Source: Dyella lipolytica
Lineage (GTDB): Bacteria > Pseudomonadota > Gammaproteobacteria > Xanthomonadales > Rhodanobacteraceae
Direction of reading: 5' to 3'
Assembly (NCBI RefSeq): GCF_030160075.1
Contig: NZ_BSNQ01000003.1
Span: 1,182,556-1,246,555, forward strand
DNA length: 64,000 bases
The notes under the pieces were generated by a model. That model saw nothing but the letters and a program-made list of their open reading frames with translations. It had not been told where the DNA came from and made no database searches. Shown here piece by piece: positions 1,930 to 64,000 of this stretch. The position numbers and the translations under genes were made by a program. The first letter of the stretch is position 1. Every line of letters starts with the position of its first letter.

Positions 1930-3888
1930 TTATTTGCGCGGAGCGATGATTTCGCTCAGGTAATCGGGCGTGCCTTCAACACGCACCAGGTGCGGGTATT
2001 GCAGGCCGCCGTGGTAGTCCACCGGTACCGTGCGGTAGCCGCCCTGGTATTTCAATAGCAGCTGGATCGGCGCGTTACTGTTCTTGGCCGCCGCGATCGC
2101 ACTCTTCAATACATCGTTCGAATAGGTCTGCCCGTTCACCGCAACCAGGCTGGCCCCGGTACTGACGCCAGCCTTGAATGCCGGCCCGTCCCAGCGTACG
2201 TCGTTGACCTGCCCCGCATCGTTCATTGTCAGACCGATCGACCAGGCGAAGTTGTACAGATGGCGAGACGATTGCGGCCGGCTGTTGTACTGCTTCTCGT
2301 ACGCGCTTTCCTGATCGGTGTAGACCAGCTTCCAGCCGGTCGCTGCGATACCGTTCTCCAGCGGCGGATCGAGCGTATCGACATGTGCGCGCAGGAAGCT
2401 CGCCCAGTCGTACTTGGCGACGCCGTTCAGGGCTGCCACTACGTCGTCAAAGGTGTAGGTCTTGGTGACGTAGCTGCCGTTGTCGACACCGAAGAAAGCG
2501 CGTGCAAAATCGTCCAGCGATTTTTGGTCATGCGTCAGGGTACGCAGCTTGGCGTCCATCTCCAGCCACATCATCTGGCCGCCGCTGTAGTAATCCTCGC
2601 TCATCTGCCAGCTGCGGTACGGCAGGCTGGAGCGGCGGGCAGCAGTCGCGTCGTTGGTGGTGTCTTCGAGCGTGCGCCACTGGAAGCCTTCACGATTGCG
2701 TTCGTAGTTGGCCGCCACCATGGCCAATGCGTCGCGGAACTGCTGCGGCGTCCACATGCCGGCGCGCGCCGTCAGCACGAAACCCCAGTATTGAGTCTGC
2801 CCCTCGTATACCCACAGCAGCGAGTCGCCCATCGGCACGTTGAAGTTGGGTGTCCACAGATCGGCCGGACGGCGGAACTTGCCGTTCCACGAATGCGTGT
2901 ACTCGTGAGCCAGCAAGTCGCGGTCAGGCGCAGCGTCGTTCCAGGCGGTGAAGTAGTCGGCGCCCAAACCGTTCTCGCTGGACTGGTGGTGCTCCGTGCC
3001 GTTGCCACCCAGCACGTCCGACAGCGAGAACAGGAAGTCGTAATGGTCGTAGTGGTGCGAGCCGAACAATGTCACGGCCTGCGTCACCAGCGCGCGATGC
3101 ACCTTGATCTGCTCGGGCGTCATTTCCAGGTACTTCGGCGCGTCGGCGACGATGTCCAGGTGCACCGACGTCTCGCCGCCTGGGTTGAGATCGACACGTT
3201 TGAAGTATTGACCCGCATAGATGGGCGAGTCGACCAAGTTGTTGAGCGTCACCGGCTTGAACGTGATGGTATCGCCCGATTGCGAGGCGGTCTCCAGCGC
3301 GGTGCCGAGCTGCCAGCCATGTGGCAGCGTCACGCTGGGCGCGAAGGTGATACCGCGCGAAAAATAGCCGGCCGGATACAACGCCACCTTGCTCCATTCC
3401 ATGTCCATCATGCGGTCGGTGATCTCGAATCCCTCGCCGTCGGTGCGGCCCGACATGTACTGGAATGTCGCATCGACCGTGGATACGTCTGCAGGCACGT
3501 CGACATGGAACGCGTACACGTTGTACTTGTCGCGTTTCCACATGAGCGGCTTGCCGTTGGCGCTGAGCTTGAGGCCGGCGAGCATGGCGATCGGGCCCGT
3601 CGGCGAGTGATCGCCGGGAATCCACTGCGGGTACAGCAGCGTCAGCGCGCCCGACTTCACCGGAATCGTTTCATGGACGCGGAAAATGCCCTGCGCCGTG
3701 TCGTTCGCATCGACATGAAGCGCCACCGTACCAACGTACGGCGTGTCCTGTGGCGGCGGCACATCGTCGGTGTACGCTTGCTGTGCACCGACAGTACCAG
3801 CCGCGAGTGCCATCGCTACGGCTAAAGCGAGACGCGAAAACGTACGATGCATGGCAAGCGGCGAACCAGCGGTGGGGATAAGAGACAT
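1930..3888 (-). CDS. Secreted M61 family metallopeptidase with PDZ domain
   Basis: Zinc aminopeptidase of the M61 (glycyl aminopeptidase) family, acting outside the cytoplasm. The zinc motif HEYTHSWN (HExxH) sits near residue 327, followed by the family's glutamate-containing WVYEGQTQYWG segment. A C-terminal PDZ-like part (about 520-620, GPAFKAGVSTGASLVAVNG) is present, as is usual. The start at 3888 is chosen because GGAG lies about nine bases upstream; it gives 652 residues with a signal peptide ending near AAGTVGAQQ. A later Met at 3852 would also leave a signal peptide. Monocistronic, between an ABC exporter and a MocR regulator. Confidence 0.92.
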   Translation of the reverse strand: MSLIPTAGSPLAMHRTFSRLALAVAMALAAGTVGAQQAYTDDVPPPQDTPYVGTVALHVDANDTAQGIFRVHETIPVKSGALTLLYPQWIPGDHSPTGPIAMLAGLKLSANGKPLMWKRDKYNVYAFHVDVPADVSTVDATFQYMSGRTDGEGFEITDRMMDMEWSKVALYPAGYFSRGITFAPSVTLPHGWQLGTALETASQSGDTITFKPVTLNNLVDSPIYAGQYFKRVDLNPGGETSVHLDIVADAPKYLEMTPEQIKVHRALVTQAVTLFGSHHYDHYDFLFSLSDVLGGNGTEHHQSSENGLGADYFTAWNDAAPDRDLLAHEYTHSWNGKFRRPADLWTPNFNVPMGDSLLWVYEGQTQYWGFVLTARAGMWTPQQFRDALAMVAANYERNREGFQWRTLEDTTNDATAARRSSLPYRSWQMSEDYYSGGQMMWLEMDAKLRTLTHDQKSLDDFARAFFGVDNGSYVTKTYTFDDVVAALNGVAKYDWASFLRAHVDTLDPPLENGIAATGWKLVYTDQESAYEKQYNSRPQSSRHLYNFAWSIGLTMNDAGQVNDVRWDGPAFKAGVSTGASLVAVNGQTYSNDVLKSAIAAAKNSNAPIQLLLKYQGGYRTVPVDYHGGLQYPHLVRVEGTPDYLSEIIAPRK

Positions 3889-3961
3889 GGGGACTCCGGC
3901 AAGCAAGTGGATAATCCCGCAACTTAACACCACAGGTACCGGGTAAGGCTAGAGGCAGCTC

Positions 3962-5437
3962 TTAAATGCACGCCGCGAGTCTGCGTACGCCCTCACGAAG
4001 CTCGTGCACATTCGCACCCGCGTAGCCAAGGATTACCCCACCCCGATGGGGCGGAGTTGCATAGCAAATGGACAAAGGTCGCGCTGATACACCTTTCTGA
4101 GCGGCCTTGATTGACACGGCCACGTCGTCAACGCCCGCTGGGAGCAACGCCACCAACTGCATGCCAGCTTCGGTGCCGATCACTTCAAGCCGGTCTCCCA
4201 GGTACTTTTGGATGGCTTCAAGCAATGCTGTCCGCCGCTCCAGGTACAACGCTCGCATTCGACGGATGTGACGCGCGAAGTGCCCCTCGCGAATGAAGTC
4301 GGTCAGCACGACTTGATACAGCATGGACGAAAACGTGTCGAAAGCATCGCGAACTGTAGCGAACGCGGGCACCAGATCTTTGGGAACTACCACATAGCCC
4401 ACTCGCAATGCGGGAAACATCACCTTGCTGAAGGTTCCTACGTAGATGACCCTATCGTCGGTATCCATACCTTGTAGCGAAGCCAGCGGGCGACCGCCGA
4501 ATCGGTACTCGCTGTCGTAGTCGTCTTCGATGATCCAGGCGCCGGTGTGTACGGCCCAATTCAGCAGTTGCATGCGTCGCGTTGCGCTCATGGTGGTGCC
4601 GAGCGGGAATTGGTGTGATGGGCTGATATATGCTGCCCGCGCACCGCTCGCCCGGAGGATGCCCTGCTCCACGTCAAGGCCTTCTTCGTCCACCGGAACC
4701 GCGACGACTTCTGCGCCGATCGTCTTCAATACCTGCCGCGCACCGGGATAGCCGGGGTCTTCCATCCACACGCGATCCCCCGCATCCAACAAAGCGTGCG
4801 CGCAGATTTGCAGGCCTTGTTGCGATCCCGTGGTGATAAGAATCTGCGACGCGTCGCAGCGCACAGCACGAACGGTGCCTAAGTATTCGGCGATGGCTTC
4901 CCGCAGCGGCAGATAGCCCATGGCACTGCCGTACACCATGTGATCGATCGGCGGCTTGCGCGAATGACGGTTGACGAGCTTTGACCAGGTGGTGATCGGG
5001 AAGTGATCGATGGCCGGCAGACCCACGCGAAATGCACCTTGATTGTTAGCCCAGGTCTGCGCTGGTGTGCGCAATCCCTCCACACGCTGGGCGATGCGGC
5101 GTGGCGCGCTCTCCTGTGATGGTGACGCATGCCGCTCGGTGATGCCGGTCGACTTCAATACGTCGCCCGGGATCGATCGCGCGACACAGGTGCCGGCACC
5201 CACAAAGGTTTCCAGATAGCCTTCGGCAAACAGCTGCTCGTATGCACTGAGCACCGGCACACGGGAGATCTTCAGTTCTATCGCAAGACTTCGGGTCGAT
5301 GGCACACGCTGTCCGGGACGCAGTTGCCCGTCGATGATCGCGTGCCGAAACCATTCGGATAACTGGTCGTACATCGGTGTGTCGCTTGCGGCATCGAGTG
5401 CGACCGGCGGCAGAAAACCAGCAGGGATACGTTTCAT
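3962..5437 (-). CDS. MocR/PdxR-type regulator (GntR winged helix fused to aminotransferase fold)
   Basis: Transcription factor of the MocR subgroup of GntR proteins. The N-terminal winged helix (about residues 10-80, MYDQLSEWFRHAIIDGQL) is followed by a fold-type I PLP domain to the end; the PLP-lysine context YVGTFSKVMFP is intact near residue 310, as is EDDYDSEYRFGG. Length 491 is normal. I chose the Met at 5437 and not the one at 5470, because the earlier start would place one arm of the putative operator inside the coding region. Targets could be its own gene and the divergent exported-protein cluster at 5551. Some members control PLP synthesis (PdxR), others GABA or taurine use; no pdx or gab gene is nearby, so the ligand is open. 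Confidence 0.9.
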   Translation of the reverse strand: MKRIPAGFLPPVALDAASDTPMYDQLSEWFRHAIIDGQLRPGQRVPSTRSLAIELKISRVPVLSAYEQLFAEGYLETFVGAGTCVARSIPGDVLKSTGITERHASPSQESAPRRIAQRVEGLRTPAQTWANNQGAFRVGLPAIDHFPITTWSKLVNRHSRKPPIDHMVYGSAMGYLPLREAIAEYLGTVRAVRCDASQILITTGSQQGLQICAHALLDAGDRVWMEDPGYPGARQVLKTIGAEVVAVPVDEEGLDVEQGILRASGARAAYISPSHQFPLGTTMSATRRMQLLNWAVHTGAWIIEDDYDSEYRFGGRPLASLQGMDTDDRVIYVGTFSKVMFPALRVGYVVVPKDLVPAFATVRDAFDTFSSMLYQVVLTDFIREGHFARHIRRMRALYLERRTALLEAIQKYLGDRLEVIGTEAGMQLVALLPAGVDDVAVSIKAAQKGVSARPLSICYATPPHRGGVILGYAGANVHELREGVRRLAACI

Positions 5438-57513: not shown

Positions 57514-57542
57514 TTGACGTCAGACATATTCAGTTCTAGCTT
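57514..57542 (+). promoter_or_regulatory. Candidate promoter of the structured leader and 92-residue protein
   Basis: TTGACG (57514-57519), a 17-bp spacer and TAGCTT (57537-57542). The -35 box is good, the -10 box weak. Predicted start about 57550, just before the structured leader. Confidence 0.4.
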
Positions 57543-57567
57543 GCACGCGTCGCTGCCAAATCAGCGG

Positions 57568-57741
57568 CCGGGTGTGAGAACCCGACGACTCAAGGCGCAA
57601 AGCGCCTCCAGGCGCTTTTTCATTGCGCCAACACTCCCGCGCGTTTATGGCGGGCGTGTCGGGCAGGCTTCGGCCTGGCCGGTTCCTTGAGTCCCGGTTT
57701 CTCACTCCGGCACGTCCGCCGCCCGTGTGTCACGGGCGGCG
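57568..57741 (+). ncRNA. Self-complementary leader RNA, attenuator or C4-like antisense element
   Basis: Two segments at the 5' end, GTGAGAA (57574-57580) and GACTCAAGG (57587-57595), are exactly complementary to TTCTCAC (57699-57705) and CCTTGAGTC (57685-57693); CCGG at 57568 and 57707 adds a third pairing. Alternatively each end folds locally (CGGGT/ACCCG at 57569-57584, CCGG/CCGG at 57694-57710) with loops that could kiss. Between them lie an intrinsic terminator and a UUCG-capped hairpin (57664-57677); a perfect 11-bp stem (57717-57741, CGCCGCCCGTG/CACGGGCGGCG) follows. The ribosome site at about 57757 comes after all of it. Confidence 0.6.
57599..57620 (+). terminator. Intrinsic terminator inside the leader
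   Basis: AAAGCGCC-tcca-GGCGCTTT followed by TT, a perfect 8-bp stem with a U-run, about 150 bp before the start codon at 57768. The outer pair GGCGCAA/TTGCGCC (57594-57600, 57623-57629) extends the stem. It would yield a short RNA of roughly 70 nt or act as an attenuator. Confidence 0.7.
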
Positions 57742-57767
57742 TTGCCAATCGCGCAAAGGAGTGTTCG

Positions 57768-58046
57768 ATGAAAGACCCCATCTGTCGTCCGTGGATTACC
57801 CTCAACACCCAATACTTCATCGCCCCCGTCGGCAGTCCGCTCGACCTGCTGGATGACGCCAACCTGCTGTTAGGCAGTGCGCAGGATCTGGCTCGAAGCC
57901 TGAGCGAAGCGATCGATCAAGCCGACAACATCAATAGCGAACATCTCGCCGGCGCGTTCTGGGGCTTGGCAACGCTTATCGAGTTGGGGCAAAGCTGTGC
58001 GAGAGAAGCGAACGAGCGCTTGCATAAGATCCGCGCGACGAAATGA
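57768..58046 (+). CDS. Small DUF3077/DUF6124-like protein with long structured leader
   Basis: 92 residues from the ATG at 57768 (AAAGGAG upstream). Pattern TQYFIAPVGSPLDLLDDANLLLGSAQDLARSLSEAI resembles the small DUF3077/DUF6124 proteins of pseudomonads, which I recall having f-V-x-G-x-p-x-x-L-L-x-x-A cores. Mostly helical, cytoplasmic, function unknown. The unusually long self-complementary leader suggests tight RNA-level control. Convergent with the GFA gene; it lies at the left edge of the island. Confidence 0.8.
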   Translation: MKDPICRPWITLNTQYFIAPVGSPLDLLDDANLLLGSAQDLARSLSEAIDQADNINSEHLAGAFWGLATLIELGQSCAREANERLHKIRATK

Positions 58047-58591: not shown

Positions 58592-59113
58592 TCAACCCAG
58601 CGTTTCTCTCTTTCCATACAAGTATCCGGCACGCTCCAAACGACGAATCAACAACGATACGAATGCTAGATGATCGAGACATGTGTCAACGTCATCCATC
58701 TGGTCCACTTCATGTCCGCGTGGATTGCGAATTGCCACCACTCCACCAGAGAACAGAAATTTGAACCCTCGCTGCTCGTCGAGCTCACTCTGTCCGCTTA
58801 GACTGTTCAGCTTCAATGTTGGATTAGTCTCATTAAAGACTTCCATCATTAACTTTTCGCCTGCCTTATTGTTCTTCGAGAGCTGCTGAACGACCTTATC
58901 CAGATACTTGAATGCCTCGAAAGTTGACTCCGCATAGTGTCCGTCGTCAAAGAAAGTCCGGACTTTAGCTGGCAGCTCAGGATGCACGTTCCTTTTGTCA
59001 AAAGGGTGCAACTGCTGCTCTAGAACAGCCTCTAGCGAAGCACTTTGATCCGCGTTGGAAAAACCACTGGCTACACGGACGATTGATTCAAAATAGTCAA
59101 GGGCGTTTGCCAT
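58592..59113 (-). CDS. TIGR02391 (Ymh) family protein with HEPN-type Rx4H motif
   Basis: 173 residues. HPELPAKVRTFFDDGHYAES, TFEAFKYLDKVVQQLS, NPTLKLNSLSGQSELDEQRG and GVVAIRNPRGHEVDQMDD match the TIGR02391 pattern. R129 and H134 form an Rx4H (RNPRGH) in the last helices, the signature of HEPN ribonucleases. The family is often found with restriction or abortive-infection genes. The start overlaps the DUF5343 gene by 17 bp, so the two are coupled. Proposed role: RNase effector of a three-gene defence-like operon. Family call good, activity inferred. Confidence 0.8.
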   Translation of the reverse strand: MANALDYFESIVRVASGFSNADQSASLEAVLEQQLHPFDKRNVHPELPAKVRTFFDDGHYAESTFEAFKYLDKVVQQLSKNNKAGEKLMMEVFNETNPTLKLNSLSGQSELDEQRGFKFLFSGGVVAIRNPRGHEVDQMDDVDTCLDHLAFVSLLIRRLERAGYLYGKRETLG

Positions 59114-59822
59114 TCATTAGGTTCTCTCGAATGCTCTTGAAAATGTTGTCATAAGTCTCTTTGTCAGCGCTTGCTGGTAGGTTGATTTCAACGCGAACCG
59201 TTAAGGCCATACCTCGAACAGCTCCGTCAACCTCGCCTCCCCCATCACCGCCATCTCCATTTTCGCTCGCAAAAACCGAAGCTCTCGAGCCCACCTGGGA
59301 CTTGCTAGATGAAGCCGATTTCGTAGCCCTGCTCTTCACTACAGGACTATCCGCTTTCTTTGTCTTCTGGGTAGATGTTTTTGGCAAATTCCCATCAAGC
59401 TTTCCACTGATCGTTGCAAGAGTCTGGAAAGTCCCAGCCTGTCTTCGACCGACAATGTCGCTGGTGTGGTCGGAACTACGGAAGAACGAAATCAGCCGAT
59501 CTGAAGTCGCAGTCCAGGCATCCACGCCATGCAGATCGAAAAGCGATGCGTAAGCATCTTGGACTATGCCGGCAAAGCCTTTCTGAAATTCGATTTCGTC
59601 ATGCTGTACGAGAACTGACGCGGCTTCAGCAATCTTGTTCCCCTCACCATCAATAATGTGAAGGAACCTAAGTGTGTTGACGATATATGTTTCGTTATTG
59701 GGCGCTATACCCAATTTCTTAAATGTCTCTGCCGTCACTTTTGCTGGAAACGATTTACGAAGCTGTGCGACTGCTGCAACCAAACCGCTCGCTCCGGATA
59801 CATATGGATGCTTGTCAGCCAT
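59097..59822 (-). CDS. DUF5343 protein
   Basis: 241 residues, GGGAGAA before the ATG. N-terminal about 130 residues match DUF5343: MADKHPYVSGASGLVAAVAQ, LRKSFPAKVTAETFKKLGIA, NETYIVNTLRFLHIIDGEGN, looking like two winged-helix units. A Lys/Ser-rich linker (about 145-185) and a Gly-rich stretch lead to a C-terminal beta-alpha module, ALTVRVEINLPASADKETYD. DUF5343 genes recur beside Ymh-type proteins as far as I recall. Possibly the sensor or regulator of the HEPN protein. Confidence 0.82.
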   Translation of the reverse strand: MADKHPYVSGASGLVAAVAQLRKSFPAKVTAETFKKLGIAPNNETYIVNTLRFLHIIDGEGNKIAEAASVLVQHDEIEFQKGFAGIVQDAYASLFDLHGVDAWTATSDRLISFFRSSDHTSDIVGRRQAGTFQTLATISGKLDGNLPKTSTQKTKKADSPVVKSRATKSASSSKSQVGSRASVFASENGDGGDGGGEVDGAVRGMALTVRVEINLPASADKETYDNIFKSIRENLMNGKRP

Positions 59823-59849
59823 ACTTATTTCTCCCAGTTAGATGGCTTT

Positions 59850-60572
59850 TTACGATTCGTCGTTGCGCGCTGCTAAAGCCTTTTTGACCTTCTTCAACAT
59901 TGCATCAACAATTAGTAGGTCCTCATCCTCAGCAACGACGATTGTTGAGTTCAATCCCGGCCCCTTGAACGTTATTGAGTAATCACCAGGCCCCAACTGA
60001 TCTGTCTTTTGAGCATTTTTTCCAACGATGCCGAACCCAGGGTTTTCCTTGCTATCGATATCGTCCAAAGTTGCATCAAGCGCTTCATTCCCGTTTGATT
60101 CGCCTATAGGAACTAAAACATTACCGGGTCCGATCATTCCCGCATGCGCAGCACCCTCCAAAAAATATGCACTCACTTTCGATGCTTGATCACCTGGAAC
60201 GTCGAATTCCCGTATCAATAACTTCTCAAAGTGCTCCATTGGCAATGACTTGCTCTGGAAACGATCGTAGATAGCTCGAAACATCGGAGGCGAAAGAAGC
60301 GCAGTTCGAAGTGCGCTTCGCTTCTCCGATTCGTTGTATGCGAGTGCGTAGTCTCGATACGACTGCTGAAGAATAAGCTTTCCACTTTTCGAGCTGAGCA
60401 GGCCGTACTTAGTGGCAGCGGAGACCAATGCGGTAAAAGCGCCACCTTGCTTCCGGTTAAGGCGTTCCGCGGCCATCTCGGTCGTGCATGAGCCACCGAG
60501 ACTGCTTACCGCATCAGCGAGCTCAATGCTGTTTACGAGCGAGGCTCTCGGGTAATCGACGTTCTTAGGCAT
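59850..60572 (-). CDS. Winged-helix protein, architectural relative of DUF5343
   Basis: 240 residues, first gene of the operon with GGAGG before the ATG. N-terminal winged helix (SIELADAVSSLGGSCTTEMA, AATKYGLLSSKSGKLILQQS), a second helical unit (LPMEHFEKLLIREFDVPGDQ) and, after an acidic linker, a C-terminal module YSITFKGPGLNSTIVVAEDE plus a Lys-rich helix. The order wHTH - linker - beta-hairpin - helix repeats that of the next gene. Not a named family to me. It may bind DNA at the palindrome in its own promoter. GC content is lower than the core genome. Confidence 0.7.
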   Translation of the reverse strand: MPKNVDYPRASLVNSIELADAVSSLGGSCTTEMAAERLNRKQGGAFTALVSAATKYGLLSSKSGKLILQQSYRDYALAYNESEKRSALRTALLSPPMFRAIYDRFQSKSLPMEHFEKLLIREFDVPGDQASKVSAYFLEGAAHAGMIGPGNVLVPIGESNGNEALDATLDDIDSKENPGFGIVGKNAQKTDQLGPGDYSITFKGPGLNSTIVVAEDEDLLIVDAMLKKVKKALAARNDES

Positions 60573-60593
60573 AGTGAAACCTCCAGTAACCGC

Positions 60594-60622
60594 ACTGTAT
60601 GCAGTTTAAAACCAGAAGTCAA
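60594..60622 (-). promoter_or_regulatory. Promoter of the three-gene HEPN operon with overlapping palindrome
   Basis: On the minus strand TTGACT (60617-60622), 17-bp spacer, TACAGT (60594-60599). The palindrome ACTG-CATA-CAGT (60594-60605) covers the -10 box, a position suited to repression. Upstream DNA to about 60720 is strongly A/T-rich, like an UP or silencer-bound region. Confidence 0.65.
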
Positions 60623-60757
60623 CTAAAACTAAGAAAGGCCTAAAATTTGAGGTTTAAATAGTCTAAGATATTTATATAAGATGATGTTTTTATTATATAA
60701 ATTAAATTAAGGCTACATGAGCATTCAATCAAGAGAGCATGGGAAGCTTTAGTTTTA

Positions 60758-60814
60758 CTCCTTCGTGCACTGCACGGCGATGTCATACCCCGCATCGGCG
60801 TGACGCATCACGCC
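60758..60814 (-). pseudogene. Fragment of a second hutU 3' end
   Basis: 57 bp at 52/57 identity to 63758-63814 of the intact hutU. In frame it reads [19 protein letters not shown] and then stops (TAA), against [20 protein letters not shown] in the intact gene. Four differences are synonymous and one changes Ala to Thr, so it comes from a diverged allele and not from a recent tandem copy. Marks a recombination or insertion junction. Confidence 0.85.
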
Positions 60815-60921
60815 GGCAGCCTAATTGCTGAAGCGTCACCTCGGAGAGTTTTAAGGGACCTTGCGACCCCGATGCCGGCGCTAGGTATCCAAAAAGTTTC
60901 ATGCGGTTGAACATCCGTTGT

Positions 60922-60992
60922 GGCTGACGCCAGCGCTTAACCGCAGCGACGAGTGCAGCGAGCTGGACAGCGACTGGAGCGCGCTGTTAGGC
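60922..60992 (-). repeat. attC site 1 of integrase-less cassette array
   Basis: On the minus strand GCCTAAC (60986-60992, matches RYYYAAC), a structured interior with AGCGCG and CGCTGCGGTTAAGC, and a degenerate end GCGTCAGCC in the position of GCGTTAGRC. The TAA of the core is the stop codon of the cassette gene at 60987. Confidence 0.65.
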
Positions 60993-61868: not shown

Positions 61869-61924
61869 ACCTAACGTCTAAGTTAAGCGGCGTAATAAGC
61901 GTCCGCTTGGACGAGTGGTTATAT
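61869..61924 (-). repeat. attC site 3
   Basis: On the minus strand ATATAAC (61918-61924), CACTCGTCCAAGCGGACG, CGCCGCTTAACTTAGAC and GTTAGGT (61869-61875). AAGCGG pairs with CCGCTT. Length 56 bp, typical of short attC sites. Confidence 0.85.
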
Positions 61925-62288: not shown

Positions 62289-62347
62289 GTCTAACGCCTG
62301 AGTTAAACGGCGTGTGTATGCGCGTCCGCTTGGGCGAATAGTTAGGG
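62289..62347 (-). repeat. attC site 4
   Basis: On the minus strand CCCTAAC (62341-62347), TATTCGCCCAAGCGGACGCG, a short centre, CGCCGTTTAACTCAGGC and GTTAGAC (62289-62295). 59 bp; the clearest attC of the array. Confidence 0.9.
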
Positions 62348-63183: not shown

Positions 63184-63237
63184 GATTCAGACAAGTTGAA
63201 GGGTGCCCGAGGCGTCCGCTTGAATGGTTAGTTAGGC
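63184..63237 (-). repeat. attC site 6
   Basis: On the minus strand GCCTAAC (63231-63237), TAACCATTCAAGCGGACGCC, then a weaker half CTTCAACTTGTCTGAATC. The first half matches the other sites (AAGCGGACGC); the second is worn. Confidence 0.65.
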
Positions 63238-63730: not shown

Positions 63731-64000
63731 TCAAATCATCGGCAACTTGAGCCCCTGCTCCTTCGCGCACTGCACGGCGATGTCGTATCCCGCATCAGCA
63801 TGACGCATCACGCCCGTACCCGGATCATTCCACAGTACGCGCGCAATACGCTTGTCCGCCGCCTCGGTGCCATCGCATACGATCACCACGCCGCTGTGCT
63901 GGCTGTAACCCATGCCGACGCCGCCGCCGTGATGCAGACTTACCCACGTAGCGCCACCGGCGACGTTGAGCATGGCGTTCAGCAGCGGCCAATCGCTCAC
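63731..64000 (-). CDS. hutU: Urocanate hydratase, C-terminal part (runs off the window)
   Basis: The last 89 or more residues of urocanate hydratase (urocanate to imidazolonepropionate in histidine breakdown). Highly conserved stretches: [38 protein letters not shown] and the ending [12 protein letters not shown]. The upstream part and the other hut genes lie beyond 64000. No intact hut gene lies on the near side; the 57-bp fragment at 60758 is from a different allele of this same 3' end. Confidence 0.97.

What the first reader, a model, noticed from the sequence alone, without database searches (positions are those of the whole stretch)
58592..60622. Three-gene winged-helix / DUF5343 / HEPN (TIGR02391) operon as a candidate defence system
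Seen: a lower-GC operon with its own promoter, GGAGG/GGGAGA ribosome sites, a 27-bp gap and a 17-bp overlap between genes, inside an island beside hutU. Known: TIGR02391/Ymh proteins are often linked to restriction and abortive-infection loci, and Rx4-6H motifs are the HEPN RNase signature; R129-x4-H134 (RNPRGH) is present. Inferred: the winged-helix and DUF5343 proteins sense or restrain the HEPN protein, which cuts RNA on phage attack. I know of no named system with exactly these three genes.
Basis: partly seen in the sequence, partly recalled or inferred. Interest (0 to 1): 0.85.

Follow-up and report, generated by a model that had tools for sequence, protein, structure and literature searches.

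The report
DUF5343–HEPN ribonuclease pair plus paralogue
Three bacterial genes in a foreign-looking patch encode a probable RNA-cutting enzyme, its usual kind of partner protein and a distant cousin of that partner; this is most likely an untested anti-phage device of a kind already listed as a candidate, in a new version.

Summary
In detail: three co-directional minus-strand genes, 27-bp gap, 17-bp overlap, low GC, HEPN motif R129-N-P-R-G-H134. The reading needs revision. (1) The conserved unit is the pair DUF5343 + HEPN, not the trio. In 15 of 17 DUF5343 loci examined a HEPN-type gene follows directly (gap -17 to +5 bp); the other two are a degraded fragment and a hit below the family cut-off. 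The HEPN comes from three families: Swt1-like (10), Ymh (2, including the window) and DUF4145-like (3, weak). The Swt1 version is in PADLOC as the untested candidate PDC-M34; the window's Ymh protein fits no PDC-M34B model. (2) The closest relative, 46%/52% identical, is the bare pair behind an integrase in a prophage-like contig. (3) Gene 1 is a distant DUF5343 relative: profile comparison gives P about 1e-5 (best control 1.6%), and AlphaFold element orders match. Of its 15 other relatives none neighbours an intact DUF5343 or a HEPN gene in the flanks read; 12 look like lone genes, two are fused to TIR/deoxyribosyltransferase-like effectors. Best explanation: a translationally coupled sensor/HEPN-RNase abortive-infection module, with gene 1 an added regulator. 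Defence activity is inferred, not shown. Verdict: new variant of a known candidate kind.

The parts
59850..60572 (-). g1, 240 aa: DUF5343-like paralogue. Predicted wHTH-like N-terminal domain plus helical bundle (residues about 11-143), disordered linker (158-195), C-terminal beta-hairpin and helix (198-239)
   Evidence: AlphaFold, pLDDT 77.5; profile comparison with DUF5343; relatives in other phyla
59097..59822 (-). g2, 241 aa: DUF5343 protein, PADLOC PDC-M34A-like; conserved helical N-domain, about 60-residue disordered linker, conserved C-terminal tail (VRVEINLPxxxxxETYDxIFKSIRxNL)
   Evidence: PF17278 29.5 bits; PDC-M34A 1.5e-18; AlphaFold, pLDDT 73.0
58592..59113 (-). g3, 173 aa: HEPN-superfamily Ymh/TIGR02391 protein, predicted RNase, motif R129-N-P-R-G-H134
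   Evidence: (PD-Lambda-3_B and Aga_HEPN models)
59097..59113 (-). 17-bp overlap of g2 and g3, consistent with translational coupling; 15 of 15 DUF5343-HEPN pairs have a gap of -17 to +5 bp
60573..60757 (-). 185-bp AT-rich (30% GC) upstream region, presumed promoter region; sigma-70-like match at 60622-60594 not above chance

Best explanation
The core is a two-gene module. g2 (DUF5343) and g3 (HEPN RNase) are made from one message by coupled translation and form one complex. g2 is the regulatory and sensing subunit: its N-terminal wHTH-like/helical domain senses an infection-related ligand, and its conserved C-terminal strand-helix tail, on a 60-residue flexible linker, holds the HEPN protein in check or positions it. 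On phage infection the HEPN protein is released or switched on, cuts RNA through R129/H134, and stops growth before phage release (abortive infection). g1 is a second, distantly related DUF5343-fold protein added upstream; it most likely acts as an extra sensor or regulator of the same complex. Shown here: gene order and overlap, DUF5343-HEPN pairing across 15 loci with three HEPN families, the HEPN motif, the g1-DUF5343 relationship at profile level, and the place of the nearest pair behind an integrase. Inferred: complex formation, sensing, RNase activity, defence, and any role of g1 in the complex.
For: DUF5343 is followed directly by a HEPN-type gene in 15 of 17 DUF5343 loci: window; L021-L028 from the Pfam search of 398 genomes, in which 11 genomes matched; L078; viral L107-L111. 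The gap is always -17 to +5 bp. Swt1-type partners keep Rx4H in 10 of 10. The nearest pair, L078 (46% and 52% identity, RNPRGH identical), sits directly after a tyrosine integrase in a prophage-like contig. PADLOC lists DUF5343 + Swt1-HEPN as PDC-M34; PDC systems are 'phage defence candidates', still uncharacterised (PMC12482510, passages). Ymh proteins are HEPN with conserved Rx4-6H and occur in R-M operons (PMC3710099, passages). The genes are low-GC; in the order, 2 of 130 other genomes have any g3 match, at 68.6 and 32.6 bits against 355.5 for the window's own. g1 and DUF5343 are homologous: hhalign 80.9%, P 1.3e-5; without any window sequence on either side 90.2%, P 1.6e-6; controls at most 1.6%; 200 column shuffles score at most 18.8 against 38.0. 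Their AlphaFold element orders match.
Against: No experiment. DUF4145-type partners (L026-L028) lack an Rx4-6H motif (0 of 3) and match DUF4145 only below its cut-off (L026 and L028 scanned), so not every DUF5343 partner need be an RNase. g1 has no repeated association with the pair. Profile comparisons with few or close g1 relatives were negative or weak (0.4-12.6%), and single sequences do not find the other family (0.5-0.6%); the link needs the diverse set. g1 and g2 tails show no sequence similarity above background. The g2 model has no PDB fold match (best E 1.3). The five neighbouring ORFs scanned against Pfam gave no defence gene. The DUF5343-Ymh combination is seen only twice. A search of 248 genomes of the class with the g2/L078 profile gave no convincing relative besides the window.
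Confidence: 0.55

Rival explanations
1. Toxin-antitoxin / addiction module: g3 is an RNase toxin neutralised by g2, a DNA-binding antitoxin that also represses the operon through its wHTH-like domain; g1 is the repressor or a second antitoxin. The benefit is stabilising the mobile element, not phage sensing.
For: Order regulator-then-HEPN with overlapping or abutting genes is TA-like and constant in 15 of 15 pairs. The N-domain of g1 looks like a DNA-binding wHTH. The nearest pair sits in a prophage-like element. Two g1 relatives stand near TA genes (HigB toxin and HTH gene in L074, AbiEii and DUF6088 genes in L076).
Against: g2 is large for an antitoxin (241 aa), with a long linker and two separate parts. 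DUF5343 stays while the HEPN family changes, more like a sensor with exchangeable effectors. HEPN TA systems known to me use MNT antitoxins (recalled), and no such gene was found among the proteins scanned. Defence and TA overlap and are not separable by sequence.
Confidence: 0.27
2. g1 is functionally independent: a lone regulator or one-gene system that happens to lie upstream of a DUF5343-HEPN pair in an insertion hot spot.
For: 0 of 15 other g1-family loci have a HEPN match in the fetched flanks, and 12 look like lone genes by eye. The nearest g2-g3 pair lacks g1. The 3' side of hutU is a variable site in the genus.
Against: Same strand, 27-bp gap without a terminator-like site in it, same low GC. 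g1 and g2 are distant relatives, as might be expected of cooperating subunits.
Confidence: 0.4
3. A housekeeping or stress RNA-processing unit unrelated to mobile-element conflict.
For: HEPN domains also serve RNA processing and stress responses (PMC3710099, abstract passage).
Against: Patchy distribution: DUF5343 in 11 of 398 genomes, Ymh in 15 of 398; g3 matches in only 2 of 130 other genomes of the order, both far lower scoring. Low GC. Integrase-linked relative.
Confidence: 0.06

Closest known systems
PADLOC PDC-M34 (DUF5343 'M34A' + Swt1-like HEPN 'M34B'), an untested phage-defence candidate
   Same: g2 matches M34A (1.5e-18, residues 1-236 of 241); HEPN gene directly downstream, overlapping
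   Different: the HEPN is of the Ymh/TIGR02391 family and matches no M34B model; an extra DUF5343-like gene (g1) lies upstream
PD-Lambda-3 (PADLOC model PD-Lambda-3_B)
   Same: its B protein carries the same Ymh-type HEPN domain (1.6e-16 over g3 residues 36-162)
   Different: PD-Lambda-3_B is longer (the match starts at model position 135 of 270); g3 is the bare domain beside DUF5343, not beside a nuclease partner (system make-up partly recalled; a PMC10952713 passage lists a PD(D/E)XK domain for PD-lambda-3)
Ymh HEPN proteins fused to paraMORC, AbiJ-NTD1 or AbiTii domains (PMC3710099, passages)
   Same: same HEPN family with Rx4-6H, linked to defence operons
   Different: there the regulatory domain is fused; here it is a separate DUF5343 subunit
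HEPN-MNT toxin-antitoxin systems (recalled)
   Same: two-gene unit with a HEPN RNase as toxic part
   Different: no nucleotidyltransferase antitoxin found; the partner is DUF5343

Membership tests
HEPN superfamily, Ymh (PF09509/TIGR02391) | profile match above curated cut-off | tested here: met
   PF09509 102.6 bits (cut-off 25), TIGR02391 75.9 bits (cut-off 39.45)
HEPN superfamily, Ymh (PF09509/TIGR02391) | Rx4-6H catalytic motif | tested here: met
   R129-NPRG-H134; aligned with 15 other Ymh proteins, H in 16 of 16, R in 11 and K in 5 of 16
HEPN superfamily, Ymh (PF09509/TIGR02391) | RNase activity / HEPN dimer | not testable with these tools
PADLOC PDC-M34 | M34A (DUF5343) protein | tested here: met
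   PDC-M34A 1.5e-18, residues 1-236
PADLOC PDC-M34 | M34B (Swt1-like HEPN) protein | tested here: not met
   none of the three proteins matches an M34B model at E<=1; g3 is of another HEPN family
PADLOC PDC-M34 | A and B genes adjacent, A first, coupled | tested here: met
   17-bp overlap; same order and -17 to +5 bp in 15 of 15 pairs
PADLOC PDC-M34 | anti-phage activity | not testable with these tools
   PDC systems described as still uncharacterised (PMC12482510 passage)
PD-Lambda-3 | B protein with Ymh-type HEPN domain | tested here: met
   PD-Lambda-3_B 1.6e-16 but only model positions 135-263 of 270
PD-Lambda-3 | its partner gene next to B | tested here: not met
   none of the three trio proteins matches another PD-Lambda-3 model; Pfam scan of five neighbouring ORFs gave no nuclease
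Aga (short Argonaute) class II with HEPN effector | Argonaute gene beside the HEPN gene | tested here: not met
   no Argonaute-type match among the trio and five neighbouring ORFs scanned
DUF5343 superfamily (proposed for g1) | homology to DUF5343 N-domain | tested here: met
   profile-profile 80.9%, P 1.3e-5, 139-146 columns; controls <=1.6%; but PF17278 itself does not hit g1 and small profiles or single sequences miss the link
DUF5343 superfamily (proposed for g1) | HEPN gene directly downstream of the DUF5343-like gene | tested here: not met
   g1 is followed by g2; in 15 other g1-family loci no HEPN match in the fetched flanks
Type II-like toxin-antitoxin module | small antitoxin-toxin operon, toxic HEPN neutralised by partner | tested here: inconclusive
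   order and overlap fit; toxicity and neutralisation not testable here

The most novel reading that the evidence does not exclude
DUF5343 and the g1 family form one unrecognised superfamily of sensor/adaptor subunits of bacterial immunity. They combine a wHTH-like/helical domain, a disordered linker and a structured C-terminal docking tail, and plug into exchangeable effectors: Swt1-, Ymh- and DUF4145-type HEPN proteins in operons, TIR/deoxyribosyltransferase-like domains by fusion. The window is a rarer form in which two different members (g1 and g2) jointly control one HEPN RNase, a two-key trigger.
Probability: 0.28. Interest if true: 0.72.

Novelty: new variant of a known kind. Interest (0 to 1): 0.5.

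Why it matters
A domain of unknown function (DUF5343) has a HEPN-type neighbour in 15 of 17 loci examined, from three different HEPN families, so a functional test of one pair would speak for many. The profile link between DUF5343 and the g1 family, which also occurs fused to TIR-like effectors, suggests a common sensor module used with different killing parts. No paper in the library searched holds the words DUF5343, TIGR02391, PDC-M34, PF17278 or PF18731; the library holds no preprints and lacks most subscription journals.

Tried and rejected
Rejected: the trio as a conserved unit. Rejected: the idea that the C-terminal tails of g1 and g2 are one motif; with tail HMMs, g1 tails score like the background of 632 C-termini (3 of the 632 were copies of a DUF5343 end that scored high, as they should). 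Not found: DUF5343 or g1 on plasmids or phages; tblastn of g1 against plasmids and phages, of g2 and L024's DUF5343 against plasmids, and of L078's DUF5343 against phages gave nothing. Ymh domains do occur there: g3 matches 79 plasmid records (30-36% identity in the 40 rows listed) and L078's HEPN matches two phage records (28.8%). Rejected as false: the 19 matches outside the window's own genome (16-25 bits), 17 of which cover only model positions 157-241, which I read as low-complexity linker matches. Dropped from the g1 family: L059 (E 0.004), whose frame runs opposite a transporter-permease-like ORF. DUF5343 hit L029 is below the family cut-off; DUF5343 hit L020 is a real but degraded fragment.

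Led nowhere: single-sequence viral scans for g1 and g2 and alignment scans A1 and A2; viral scans A7 and A8, which only returned the contig of L078 again; PDB sequence searches for g1, g2, g3 and one Swt1-HEPN (nothing below E 0.48); PDB fold search for g2 (best E 1.3); search for the left flank in the same-genus genome G707 (nothing). Swt1-like and Ymh HEPN profiles did not find each other either (0.7%), so their common superfamily rests on Pfam names and PMC3710099.

Full report
Observation. They have 48-50% GC in a window of 59.7%. g2 is DUF5343 just over the Pfam cut-off; g3 is a strong Ymh/TIGR02391 HEPN protein with R129-N-P-R-G-H134; g1 has no family at cut-off. The promoter-like site is not above chance.

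The pair is the unit. A Pfam search for DUF5343 in 398 genomes of the phylum found 11 genomes, 10 of them over the cut-off. Besides the window, eight of these loci (L021-L028) carry a HEPN-type gene directly after DUF5343: five Swt1-like (L021-L025, PF18731 47.8-58.6 bits, cut-off 27.5) and three DUF4145-like (L026 and L028 scanned, 18.5 and 21 bits, below the cut-off of 23.1; L027 by a home-made HMM of those two). In L027 the DUF5343 gene is interrupted. The other two genomes give a degraded DUF5343 fragment (L020) and a hit below cut-off (L029). A viral-contig scan with an alignment of five DUF5343 proteins gave five more loci, each with a Swt1-like HEPN gene behind, by a home-made HMM in all five and by Pfam in the one scanned, L107. 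A viral-contig scan with g3 gave L078: DUF5343 (46% to g2) and Ymh-HEPN (52% to g3) overlapping by 8 bp, right after a tyrosine integrase and before HTH-like and DUF3987 genes, with no g1-like gene in the 10.5 kb read. In total 15 of 17 loci pair DUF5343 with a HEPN-type gene, always with -17 to +5 bp between the genes. Rx4H is kept in 10 of 10 Swt1-like partners and both Ymh partners, and is absent from 3 of 3 DUF4145-like ones.

What is already listed. PADLOC holds DUF5343 and Swt1-like HEPN as PDC-M34A and PDC-M34B. g2 fits M34A; g3 fits no M34B model but fits the HEPN parts of PD-Lambda-3_B and Aga_HEPN. PDC systems are called 'phage defence candidates', still uncharacterised, in PMC12482510 (passages seen). 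For Ymh, PMC3710099 (passages seen) gives a conserved Rx4-6H, solo forms and fusions to paraMORC, AbiJ-NTD1 and AbiTii domains, and operons with restriction-modification. Searches for DUF5343, TIGR02391, PDC-M34 and 'Swt1-like HEPN' found no paper; PF17278, PF09509 and PF18731 together found one, PMC3710099, through PF09509 only. The library lacks preprints and most subscription journals.

Gene 1. Four relatives (35-52% identity over the best segment) came from a scan of species genomes: a MAG named Candidatus Ferrigenium altingense, one labelled Williamsia and two labelled Bacteroidetes/Bacteroidia. More distant ones came (L020). Counted are 15 loci outside the window (L019, L020, L054-L058, L074-L077, L125-L128); L059 was dropped because its frame runs opposite a permease-like ORF. 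None of the 15 has a HEPN match in the fetched flanks and none an intact DUF5343 (L125 and L126 lie near contig ends, so their flanks are short). L020 has the DUF5343 fragment 0.46 kb away on the other strand. L019 and L054 are fusions to a TIR/deoxyribosyltransferase-like domain (PADLOC TIR effector 7e-9 and 1.9e-8; Pfam PF05014 below cut-off). In L077 a 320-aa protein with an RAITDH (Rx4H) stretch but no Pfam family follows 6 bp behind. L074 lies near HigB and HTH genes and L076 beside AbiEii and DUF6088 genes. By eye 12 of the 15 look like lone genes.

g1 and g2 are relatives. With few or close sequences hhalign saw nothing convincing (12.6%; 0.4-0.7%). With 12 diverse g1-family N-domains against 14 DUF5343 the probability rose to 77.5% (P 1.9e-5), and with 16 to 80.9% (P 1.3e-5). 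Sets without any window sequence on either side gave 90.2% (P 1.6e-6). Controls (reversed DUF5343, Swt1 and Ymh HEPN profiles, three other HTH-type single proteins) gave at most 1.6%, and 200 column shuffles scored at most 18.8 against 38.0; 60 shuffles scored at most 21.5 against 36.7. Single g1 or g2 sequences against the other profile gave 0.5-0.6%. The AlphaFold models (pLDDT 77.5 and 73.0) show the same order of helices at nearly the same positions, then a disordered linker and a structured tail; they could not be superposed here. Fold searches found only weak wHTH matches for g1 and none for g2. The tails of the two proteins show no sequence similarity beyond background.

Setting. The patch lies between a GFA-family gene and the 3' end of hutU. 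A 64-nt copy of the hutU 3' end is repeated exactly 3,000 bp away (60758 and 63758), and small ORFs with attC-like sites lie between the copies. A C4 antisense RNA with its targets lies at 57536-57726. In a genome of the same genus, G707, hutU is 87% identical, but its 3' side carries transposase-, resolvase- and RES/Xre-like genes (annotation by eye). G707 has two Ymh proteins, longer than g3 and far lower scoring; one more of 130 other genomes of the order has a weak match. g1 and g2 were not searched for in G707. This is a variable, foreign-gene-rich site.

Mechanism and verdict. The constant coupling of DUF5343 to changing HEPN partners fits a regulatory or sensing subunit with an exchangeable effector. 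I commit to an abortive-infection RNase module (about 0.55), with a toxin-antitoxin reading as main rival (about 0.27). Whether g1 takes part is open (about 0.6 that it does). Nothing here shows activity. It is a new variant of a candidate kind already listed, with one new relationship (g1 to DUF5343) that would gain interest if experiments show a shared sensor module.

Noticed in passing
window 60758-60821 and 63758-63821: 64-nt direct repeat (88%) of the hutU 3' end, start-to-start exactly 3000 bp, flanking a stretch of small ORFs; looks like the ends of an inserted piece or a duplication at the 3' end of hutU.
   Followed up: partly
window 60935-60992; also about 61876-61921, 62292-62345, 63212-63235: attC-like sites: one clean 58-nt site by pattern, the others by eye from a shared 23-nt repeat, between small ORFs; suggests integron gene cassettes without a nearby integron integrase (no match over the family cut-off in the genome).
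   Followed up: partly
window 57536-57726 (+): C4 antisense RNA (67.5 bits) with its a1/b1 target element (56.8 bits): a phage-type immunity RNA, probably a phage or satellite remnant close to the trio; the ORF at 57687-58046 has no Pfam match.
   Followed up: no
L019:1875-2942 and L054:5979-7370: g1-family domain fused to a TIR/nucleoside-deoxyribosyltransferase-like domain: possible one-gene sensor-effector proteins.
   Followed up: partly
L077:6001-7722: g1 relative followed 6 bp downstream by a 320-aa protein with an RAITDH (Rx4H) stretch and no Pfam family; possible unassigned HEPN-like effector.
   Followed up: partly
L026-L028: DUF5343 paired with a DUF4145-like protein lacking Rx4-6H (has GDKSxH): a third, perhaps non-RNase, partner type; in L027 the DUF5343 gene is interrupted.
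   Followed up: no
L078:1282-5975 (IMGVR_UViG_2802429380_000001): Two integrase genes face each other's side, the second (2908-4209) followed directly by the DUF5343-Ymh pair: possibly tandem prophage/satellite with the pair as integrase-side cargo.
   Followed up: partly
L118:4256-5071 and L119:4225-5043 (same-genus genome G707): Two Ymh-HEPN proteins with an extra N-terminal region (271 and 272 aa); L118's copy has a nuclease-like gene directly downstream (by eye, like the annotated restriction endonuclease of plasmid locus L017).
   Followed up: no
L126:2137-4511: A g1-family gene about 0.3 kb from a DNA-methylase-like gene and a restriction-endonuclease-like gene on the other strand (by eye).
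   Followed up: no
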